A DNA stretch of 64,000 nt from Mytilisepta virgata (lineage: Eukaryota > Mollusca > Bivalvia > Mytilida > Mytilidae): the NCBI GenBank assembly GCA_028015205.1, contig CM051519.1:43319979-43383978 (forward strand), in the 5' to 3' direction. Under the pieces are notes generated by a model, which did no database searches, was not told where the DNA came from, and saw only the letters and a program-made list of their open reading frames with translations. Positions 9,301-12,300 of this stretch are shown in pieces. Numbering within the stretch: position 1 is the stretch's first letter; the number at the start of each line of letters is the position of its first letter. The position numbers were made by a program, and so were the translations under genes.

Positions 9301-12300
9301 TTAAAAATGTTCAAAAGTGTTGGAAGGTTAAAAATAATAAATATATATATATAATATTTCAATACAGCACGCTGAAAGCTATTCATTTATGGCATGAAGC
9401 TTAAAGTGAATATACCAAGCCTATCTTAAAATTAGTTATATTTCAATCACATATTTTATATATTTAATGAGGCACTATGAATGGTGTTCACTTTCTGTGA
9501 TTATTGAAATTCATACTGAGTTTGCCAAGCCTTAGCTAAATTGTCAAAGCCTGAATAGGTATAAAAAAGCATGACCCTCACGTTTCAATCATCATTTTAA
9601 GTTACAATCATGGCAAAAGCACAGTTAGATGTTCAAATCGTTACTAACAGAAAGACTCCATAATGGTGAAATCGCTCCCGCTGACTACGCAGACGCAGCC
9701 TCACATCTGTTACACTTGGACTAAATTGCCATGTCACTAGTTGTTATTCAGTGCTTGTGTTTATTTACTGTCATTGTTTTATGAGTGTCAATGCTTAATG
9801 TTTACTGTCAGTGTAAATTTTAGTGCTTTGTTTTTATTGTTATTGCTATGCATATTATTGAAACAAATATTATGATATTAAAGTAATCAAATTTATATTC
9901 TAGTATAATTTTCATTTAATCTATATGAAGTCTCGAAAGGATATGACACACATAAACTGCTACATATCTAACAATGGTGCAATTTCCATATAAAACAAAA
10001 AAAAAGTTGAGATACAAAAATACCCCAATATCTGACTTAACCAATTATCTTCTTAATTAGACAATGTTTACACAAGACATTTATGTTTATACAATATTCA
10101 ACCTATGCCTACAAACTTTTTTTTACCTTTTTATATATTTTTTCAAAATGTAAGCATAGGTTGAATGAACCACCGAAACTTATATTTGACACGTTCTTGG
10201 TGACAAAAAAACTGTTCAATGTATGCAACCCAAGCAATGTACTTCATGCTAGCCTTATAATACTCCAAGCTCGGATTAACTTATTTTTGAATAAACAGAT
10301 ACAAACAAATTAAATATATGTTTCATAAAAGTGTTTAATGAATAAATTGGTTAACTGCATAGTTTTTAAAACATTATCATTATTATATTTTTATTATTAT
10401 TTTTGTGAAGTACCGTGACGTCACAATGTGTAGCTATGCCGCTCCCCTGTTTTGCTTTATAAAGATTTTCTCAGAGACTTTTCGCTAATCTTATTTCATG
10501 ATAAGCAGTGTCATTTAAAATATAGAAACCAGAATGAAATATTATAATAAAAGTTTAATTATTGTATTAATGCTTGTTAAGATCGTTTTGTATCTTAAAT
10601 GCAAAATGAAATATAGTTTAAACGACATGTAAAATATATATAAAAAGGAATGTGTTGGGTTAATTCTTTTCCTTCGTGTAAGAGTAAATGATTATACAAT
10701 AGTTCAACCAAAGAAGCAAATGCTTTTTTTTCTCTATTCTTCATTTTACACAGTCATATTTTCAACACGGAGCACAATATCGCAACCCACTGCATACTTT
10801 AAAATACTGTTTCTAAAATAGTGTTCATAGTAACAAGCTTTGCCTAACCTTGTGGAAATGTTAATACTTATTTATACTGAATCTTAAATATCAGTTTTAT
10901 GCGGGCATCGACTGATTTTTTAATTATTTTGGGCAGCTCCGTAATTGAAATTCATAACACATAAATAAAATCAATTTTAAATTTTATTATTTATATAAAC
11001 TCTTAATTAACGTGTACTTCCTTTCTCTATAGTCGTTAGCTTGGGTCATATATAAAGAGTTTAATTAGATGTCATTTAAAATTAAAAAAAAATACATTAA
11101 GTACAATGTAATAAACATAAGATTATCAAAATATCAATTAGTTGTCTAACAGAAAATAATTAAAAAGTGTCAATTTGCCAAGGAGTTATGATTAATTTCA
11201 CGTGCCATCTTGACAACAAATTGATTTTTCAATGACACACAAAATGAATATAAATTAAGGGACTCTTGGTCAAATCATCATTCTGTCATCGGAAATCTAC
11301 CTTAAACGAAATATCTAGAATAAAATGAATTTTACAAAACTTTATCAGAAGTTACAAGAAGCCGAAACTAAAGCGCAGAAAGCATGTAAACAGATGTTAC
11401 TGCTGAATGACAAACTCGAAGGTTTGAAAACCAGATACCAAAATGCTGTGAAAACTAACTCCAGAAGCTTCCGGTACCCACTGCACATGAAGATAGTGAC
11501 TGTCCAGGGTATAATCAACGCTTACTACTATTACACAATAGAGAAACAGAAAGAAATAGATGCACTGAGATACCAATTGTTTGGAGAGGAACCAGACTAT
11601 GATCCTTACGAAGAAGAATATGGTGACTACGTAGAACAGTAAAGGGTTCCAGTTACCAGTCATAAGACTTATACGAAAGGCTCTTTTCAGAGCCACCTAA
11701 GTATTAAAAAAGTGCCTAAATTGAGTTGTATAAATGAATTGTACCATTAGTGAGTTCTTCATAAATATCATTATTTGTCTGTCTAGTAAACAACAATAAT
11801 ACATTTATCCATATACCTTGAAATTTTATAGAACATTATTATAGTCATACAGATCTCAGAAAATGGACAAAAGTTCTAGCACTTTTTAAACAATTGTCCG
11901 CGTCAGATCGTAGAAAAGAACCATTAAAATCCATGCATTAAAACAAAAATTAAACACAATCTAAAAGTAAAAACTAAACACAATCTAAAAGTAAATTATT
12001 AAACACAATAACAACAAAAAAAGAAGGCGAAATAATAAAATAAAATAAAAATTCAAAAAAGTAGAAAATCACATAAATATTTTCATGAAATATTTAAAAA
12101 TAGAAATAGGATTTTATAGTCTGCTGGTATTACTTTGGATTCTTTCATATATTTATGTTCGAACATGTTTCATAAATAACAAAGTTCTACGTCTCCATGA
12201 CGGAGATGCATTTTAGCAAATTAAAAAAAAACCCTTGGTCAAATGCTTAACAGGTGACTGTGCAGTCATAGAAGCTTAGTAAGCTCGCAAATTTCAGATA

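What the first reader, a model, noticed from the sequence alone, without database searches (positions are those of the whole stretch)
11325..11697. A non-histone gene ending in a perfect histone mRNA stem-loop
The intronless 105-aa ORF is followed 37 nt after its stop by GGCTCTTTTCAGAGCC with GAAA before and ACC after, the canonical animal histone 3' signal. The protein has no histone fold I can see: a helical Lys/Glu/Leu-rich N-half, a Tyr patch and a very acidic tail. Replication-dependent histone genes are the established users of this element; non-histone users are very rare. The TATA box, short leader and lack of introns complete the histone-gene layout. Inference: a small acidic protein made in S phase, oogenesis or spermatogenesis, possibly a histone-handling or chromatin protein that captured histone-type regulation.
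Basis: partly seen in the sequence, partly recalled or inferred. Interest (0 to 1): 0.88.

Follow-up and report, generated by a model that had tools for sequence, protein, structure and literature searches.

The report
Non-histone gene family with histone ends
A small protein that is not a histone, from what appears to be a mussel genome, belongs to a large gene family whose members mostly carry the RNA hairpin that animals are thought to reserve for histone messages, which suggests that a second set of genes may be controlled like histones.

Summary
Window 11325-11642 (+) encodes 105 aa; GGCTCTTTTCAGAGCC at 11679-11694 passes Rfam's histone 3' stem-loop cut-off (35.1 vs 34 bits). A 9.39-kb tandem duplication repeats both. 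The gene is one of a non-histone family in the window's own 1.03-Gb genome: 150 matches scored, 130 of them in one tandem array on contig C13. Of 30 family loci cut out, 28 have the hairpin just after the coding match. All 27 exact GGCTCTTTTNAGAGCCAC sites in the genome follow a family ORF; reversed-pattern control 0, about 0.03 expected. Two of six stem pairs vary on both sides. Nine of 143 homologues run on into a peptide compatible with the hairpin. Homologues named to species are Mytilus edulis and Magallana gigas. Predicted fold: a two-helix hairpin. Best reading: a bivalve multigene family whose mRNAs are probably made by the histone SLBP/U7 route. Transcript ends, S-phase timing and protein function are untested; U7 was not found. 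A Tc1-like transposon and a 101-aa family also carry the hairpin.

The parts
11249..11254 (+). TATA box (TATAAA), 76 nt before the ATG
   Evidence: function inferred
11325..11642 (+). 105-aa ORF in one exon; predicted two-helix hairpin with acidic, low-confidence tail
11679..11694 (+). Histone-type 3' stem-loop GGCTCTTTTCAGAGCC, followed by ACC
   Evidence: RF00032 35.1 bits, match 11674-11718
11703..11712 (+). A-rich stretch at the position of the histone downstream element (ATTAAAAAAG); also contains the polyadenylation-like hexamer ATTAAA
   Evidence: function inferred
20706..21023 (+). Second copy of the ORF, identical in DNA
21060..21075 (+). Second copy of the stem-loop
6359..25129 (.). 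Tandem duplication of about 9.39 kb (6359-15748 and 15742-25129, 99.96% identical) that carries the two gene copies

Best explanation
The gene is a member of a bivalve multigene family of small non-histone proteins (about 90-130 aa, a helical hairpin with a C-x-Q / RY..A / R-Y-x-L-R / YY.Y core) whose genes have the layout of replication-dependent histone genes: a reading frame in one exon, a TATA box, a short leader, a histone stem-loop mostly followed by AC or ACC and an A-rich downstream element, and in one branch a large head-to-tail array. Shown: the layout, its persistence across divergent subfamilies, paired changes in the stem, purifying selection in the paralogue pairs that could be measured, and an SLBP RNA-binding domain in the same genome. 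Inferred: the pre-mRNA is cut after the stem-loop by the U7/CPSF73 complex, carries no poly(A) tail, is stabilised and translated through SLBP, and is therefore made when histone mRNA is made (S phase, and oocyte or early-embryo stores). Also inferred, and much less certain (about 0.35): the protein is needed in quantity during chromosome duplication or early cleavage, probably as a dimer or larger coiled-coil assembly through its conserved hairpin, perhaps on chromatin, as the mostly basic core would allow.
For: Rfam hit over cut-off. 150 scored family matches of 203 candidates in the genome. Hairpin 39-83 nt after the coding match in 28 of 30 cut loci. All 27 exact GGCTCTTTTNAGAGCCAC sites follow a family ORF, 36-351 nt after its stop; reversed-pattern control 0, expected about 0.03 from base composition. 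132 GGTTCTTTTNAGAGCCAC sites, control 0; 100 listed: 96 on C13, 3 in the C5 cluster, 1 at C12:82.8 Mb; 92 of the 96 C13 sites lie exactly 87 nt beyond a family match. Divergent subfamilies (C9:10.6 Mb, C12:82.8 Mb, C18) were not in the protein search and were found through the hairpin. In 14 representative hairpins, chosen because they matched, 84 of 84 cells pair, with changes on both sides at 2 of 6 pairs. dN/dS 0.10-0.54 in the 8 of 14 paralogue pairs where it could be computed. Nine of 143 homologues run on into a peptide compatible with GGYYCTTTTHARRRCCAC; none did in 300 shuffles of each of the 24 long tails. SLBP domain PF15247 at C10:48.276 Mb, 58.7 bits. TATAWA within 100 nt of the ATG in 11 of 12 representatives, without a background control.
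Against: No transcript data: cleavage, lack of poly(A) and timing are inferred. U7 snRNA was not found: Rfam RF00066 gave nothing here or in any of the 14 control genomes, and a pattern search gave 32 sites against 25 for its reversed control, none of the 13 read being convincing. The window copies have a weak downstream element that contains ATTAAA. L033 lacks the hairpin and L038 has a broken one. 20 of the 150 matches contain an in-frame stop (counted by eye), 5 of these only because the match runs past the normal stop of the 97-aa C5 genes, so some copies are decayed. For the window gene itself dS is saturated in all 3 pairs tested, so its dN/dS could not be computed. The number of stem pairs with double changes is not unusual against shuffles (93 of 500). 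The nine read-through homologues form about four distinct groups, not nine independent cases, and their species are unknown. Nothing measured ties the protein to chromatin; the window copy's expression is unknown.
Confidence: 0.8

Rival explanations
1. Dual-fate genes: the stem-loop is present, but many members, the window pair among them, are mainly polyadenylated from signals overlapping or following the downstream element, as described for human H2AC18; the hairpin is used only in some tissues.
For: ATTAAA overlaps the window's downstream element and further signals follow; L033 has lost the hairpin and keeps AATAAA. A precedent in a histone gene is described in PMC9756948 (passages read).
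Against: A downstream element close to the histone form (CAAAAAGA or a near variant) follows the hairpin in most of the 14 representatives aligned, the window copy being the clearest exception; selection for polyadenylation alone would not maintain it.
Confidence: 0.15
2. Maternal-storage use: the hairpin serves oocyte stockpiling and early-embryo translation of these mRNAs rather than S-phase coupling in somatic cells.
For: Large gene copy number suits bulk maternal supply. SLBP-independent maternal control of histone mRNA is the topic of PMC12803260 (title and start of abstract seen in a search listing).
Against: No expression data here either way; not exclusive with the main reading.
Confidence: 0.25
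3. The genes are parts of mobile elements that spread the hairpin; their copy number reflects selfish amplification, and the link to histone processing is an element's trick.
For: A Tc1/mariner-like transposon in the same genome carries the same signal.
Against: Most family matches sit in local clusters or a tandem array rather than dispersed. Of the four ORFs of 90 aa or more that lie in or reach into the window's first duplication unit, the three scanned have no transposase match. The measurable paralogue pairs have dN/dS below 1.
Confidence: 0.04
4. Chance resemblance or assembly artefact.
For: The two window copies are nearly identical over 9.39 kb, which could be a haplotype assembled twice.
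Against: Genome-wide counts, control patterns, paired stem changes and homologues from other sources.
Confidence: 0.01

Closest known systems
Replication-dependent histone genes of animals
   Same: Single-exon frame, TATA box, short leader, stem-loop with ACC, A-rich downstream element, tandem arrays. In the same genome H4, H2A, H2B and H1 genes have the stem-loop and element, and H4, H2A and H2B a TATA box at -68 to -70 (none found for H1).
   Different: The protein is a predicted helical hairpin, not a histone fold; family stems are GGCTC, GGTTC, GGTCC or GGCCC, whereas the histone copies read here use GGCCC.
Rfam RF00032, histone 3' UTR stem-loop
   Same: Over the gathering score at both window copies (35.1 vs 34) and at five C13 array copies (36 bits).
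   Different: Attached to non-histone genes.
ING N-terminal domains and other antiparallel helical hairpins (CHMP3, LSD1, axonemal proteins)
   Same: Similar two-helix shape; best Foldseek E 0.21 and 0.18 for the two models.
   Different: No significant match, 7-20% identity in the rows shown, and many unrelated proteins score alike, so this is shape only.

Membership tests
Histone 3' UTR stem-loop (RF00032) | Covariance-model score at or above the gathering cut-off | tested here: met
   35.1 vs 34 bits at both window copies
Histone 3' UTR stem-loop (RF00032) | 6-bp stem, 4-nt loop, ACC after the stem | tested here: met
   Window copies. In 14 family members chosen because the hairpin matched, 84 of 84 cells pair; 13 of these 14 continue with AC, the window copy with ACC
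Histone 3' UTR stem-loop (RF00032) | Purine-rich downstream element that pairs with U7 | tested here: inconclusive
   A-rich element at the right place; window copy deviates; no U7 found
Histone 3' UTR stem-loop (RF00032) | Bound by SLBP and cleaved without polyadenylation | not testable with these tools
   Only an SLBP RNA-binding domain in the genome was shown
Replication-dependent histone gene | Encodes a core or linker histone | tested here: not met
   No histone family among the 25 Pfam families shown (of 32, E up to 10) for the 33 members scanned, and the window protein has no match above cut-off; predicted fold is a hairpin of two helices of about 40-48 residues
Replication-dependent histone gene | Intronless and arranged in tandem arrays | tested here: met
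   Single-exon open frames; C13 array, median spacing 1,432 nt. The window gene itself is only a tandem pair; introns in its UTRs cannot be excluded
Replication-dependent histone gene | mRNA level coupled to S phase | not testable with these tools
   No expression data
ING-type dimerisation domain | Sequence profile match to ING (Pfam) | tested here: inconclusive
   ING is not among the 25 families shown of 32; Foldseek matches not significant

The most novel reading that the evidence does not exclude
Bivalves have a second, non-histone 'histone-type' regulon: a large family of helical-hairpin proteins produced from poly(A)-minus, SLBP-controlled mRNAs in step with DNA replication; and the same signal has been taken up by a transposon and by at least one further small-protein family, so the rule that this mRNA end is reserved for histones does not hold in this lineage.
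Probability: 0.6. Interest if true: 0.93.

Novelty: new variant of a known kind. Interest (0 to 1): 0.86.

Why it matters
[quoted passage not shown] A non-histone family with some 150 gene matches in one genome, most of those examined keeping this signal through long divergence, would show that the pathway can serve other proteins, would give a natural test of what the stem-loop alone confers, and would point to an unstudied protein that bivalves may need in bulk when chromosomes are copied. It would also mean that poly(A)-selected RNA-seq under-counts such genes.

Full report
1. The observation. The window holds a 105-aa ORF at 11325-11642 (+) and, after 36 nt, GGCTCTTTTCAGAGCC followed by ACC. 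Rfam scores it as RF00032, the histone 3' stem-loop, at 35.1 bits against a cut-off of 34; the margin is small, probably because the sequence 3' of the stem departs from the usual form. A degenerate hairpin pattern is expected 0.01 times in the window and occurs twice. The second occurrence belongs to an exact second gene copy (20706-21023) in a 9.39-kb tandem duplication that is 99.96% identical. TATAAA lies 76 nt before the ATG.

2. It is a family. A search of the window's own genome (G000, 1.03 Gb in 109 contigs, unnamed) with the protein scored 150 matches of 203 candidates. They are the window pair; one at C12:81.75 Mb; 13 in a cluster at C5:30.76-30.91 Mb (51-59% identity); two at C9:38.66 Mb; one at C10:53.08 Mb; one at C12:59.09 Mb; and 130 in an array on C13 between 14.22 and 14.44 Mb (42-45% identity), where the listed hairpins have a median spacing of 1,432 nt. 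By eye, 20 of the 150 contain an in-frame stop; for 5 of them this is only the normal stop of a 97-aa gene that the match runs past. Of the 30 loci that were cut out, 28 have a hairpin 39-83 nt after the coding match; in two of the 28 (L046, L047) the frame holds a TAG. The two misses: L033, whose best approximate hairpin downstream has 6 mismatches of 16 and which has AATAAA about 290 nt after the stop; and L038, where the first two stem pairs are broken.

3. The hairpin finds the family. The exact pattern GGCTCTTTTNAGAGCCAC occurs 27 times in the genome, against 0 for the reversed pattern and about 0.03 expected from base composition. All 27 follow a family ORF, 36-351 nt after its stop. Three pairs of sites, 222 or 226 nt apart, share one ORF, so the 27 sites serve 24 ORFs; the ORF behind L072 and L073 is a truncated 64 aa. 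Three subfamilies (C9:10.6 Mb, C12:82.8 Mb, C18) were not in the protein search and were found through the hairpin. GGTTCTTTTNAGAGCCAC occurs 132 times, reversed control 0; of the 100 sites listed, 96 are on C13, 3 in the C5 cluster and 1 at C12:82.8 Mb. Of the 96 listed C13 sites, 92 lie exactly 87 nt beyond a family match, and of 97 matches in that range 92 have the site there. The 32 unlisted sites were not placed.

4. Selection. In 14 representative family hairpins, chosen because the pattern matched, all 84 cells pair, and two of six pairs show changes on both sides, with stems GGCTC/GAGCC, GGCCC/GGGCC, GGTCC/GGACC and wobble GGTTC/GAGCC. Slid versions of the structure pair in at most 52% of cells. 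Against shuffles, the covariation score and the percentage paired are high (2 of 500 reach them), but the number of pairs with double changes is not (93 of 500). Choosing loci by the pattern favours pairing, so this is supporting evidence only. Among 14 paralogue pairs tested, dN/dS is 0.10-0.54 in the 8 that could be computed; in the other 6, the 3 with the window gene among them, dS is saturated. The family is therefore old, and in the measurable pairs under constraint.

5. Other species. Two profile searches gave 337 and 396 homologues at E up to 0.1, 120 listed each time. Those named to species are Mytilus edulis (P0019, P0121) and Magallana gigas (P0137, K1PH20); a few JGI entries carry unrelated automatic names. 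Nine of 143 homologues have a tail that encodes a peptide compatible with GGYYCTTTTHARRRCCAC; none of 300 shuffles of each of the 24 long tails did. In eight of the nine a W stands where the family normally stops, so TGA was probably read as Trp; P0111 has no such W. That reading is mine; the DNA was not seen. Six of the nine (P0091, P0092, P0098, P0101, P0125, P0133) look alike, so there are about four distinct groups. A Mytilus edulis gene model (P0121) joins what look like two family copies through a tail that could encode a hairpin with one extra loop base (read by eye).

6. The protein. AlphaFold2 gives a two-helix hairpin for the window protein (helices 3-43 and 47-86, mean pLDDT 87.0) and for the C13 type (2-49 and 53-92, mean pLDDT 85.3), with a low-confidence tail. 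No Pfam family passes its cut-off for the window protein. Foldseek has no significant match. The window member is acidic (pI 5.9), but six others computed have pI 7.9-10.0. One cysteine is invariant or nearly so in alignments A4, A7 and A8.

7. How it may work. In histone mRNA (PMC7614891, passages read), SLBP binds the stem-loop, U7 snRNA within the processing complex pairs with the downstream element, cleavage falls downstream of the stem-loop, and production is limited to S phase; PMC9756948 (passages) adds that the mature message is not polyadenylated. Parts seen here: hairpin, ACC, A-rich element at the right distance and an SLBP RNA-binding domain at C10:48.276 Mb. U7 was not found; the Rfam model also rang in none of the 14 control genomes, so this says little. 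I infer the same processing for the family. The window pair is the weakest case, since its element reads ATTAAAAAAG and could serve as a polyadenylation signal, as shown for human H2AC18, whose signal overlaps the downstream element (PMC9756948, passages read). What the protein does is open; my guess is a dimeric or oligomeric scaffold needed in bulk when chromosomes are copied or in early cleavage (confidence about 0.35).

8. Other users of the signal. Among the first RF00032 loci, a Tc1/mariner-like transposase (DDE_3) has the hairpin 22 nt after its stop in all six loci L003-L008, with CAAAAAGAATCT after it; in L004 the open frame is only 167 aa. A search with this transposase found five full-length copies at 99-100% and two at 82%. 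The exact hairpin GGCCCTTTTAAGGGCCAC lies just past the C13 copy at 82% (C13:81020647) but not beside the C2 copy at 82%, nor beside the four full-length relatives at 58-61%. A 101-aa family without a Pfam hit in three members scanned has it about 20 nt after the stop in L010, L012 and L014-L016, and after a 72-aa form in L013; L011 is disrupted. GGCCCTTTTAAGGGCCAC occurs 100 times, reversed control 0; some of these are in the histone arrays and the rest were not all assigned.

9. Organism. Fourteen contigs of 37-130 Mb (C1-C14) and the closest named homologues (Mytilus) suggest a mytilid bivalve; this is inference, the usual mytilid chromosome number being recalled.

10. Literature. In the searches named under Tried and rejected I saw no report of a non-histone animal gene family with this element; PMC6303110 (abstract) states that core histone mRNA is the only known metazoan case. 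The library is open-access only.

Noticed in passing
L003-L008 (G000 C5, C6, C7, C8, C9, C11): A Tc1/mariner-like transposon (378-aa DDE_3 transposase) carries a perfect histone stem-loop and a CAAAAAGAA element 22 nt after its stop; of two 82% copies, the one on C13 also has the hairpin.
   Followed up: partly
L010, L012-L016 (G000 C3, C4, C11, C12:46.4 Mb): A second non-histone family of 101 aa (72 aa in L013), no Pfam hit in the three members scanned, ends in the histone stem-loop about 20 nt after the stop.
   Followed up: partly
window 6359-25129: Recent 9.39-kb tandem duplication (99.96%, two mismatches) that also duplicates a 98-aa ORF and part of a 570-aa ORF.
   Followed up: partly
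L072-L075, L086-L087 (G000 C9:10.63 Mb, C18): Some family genes have two stem-loops 222-226 nt apart after one stop codon.
   Followed up: no
L033 (G000 C12:81.75 Mb): A family member without stem-loop but with AATAAA about 290 nt downstream, possibly like a replication-independent counterpart.
   Followed up: partly
window 51765-52686: Direct repeats offset by 161 bp, about 97% alike.
   Followed up: no
upstream of 12 family representatives, 250 nt: TGACA/TGTCA occurs 31 times against 5.7 in single-base shuffles; possibly a shared promoter element, control weak.
   Followed up: partly
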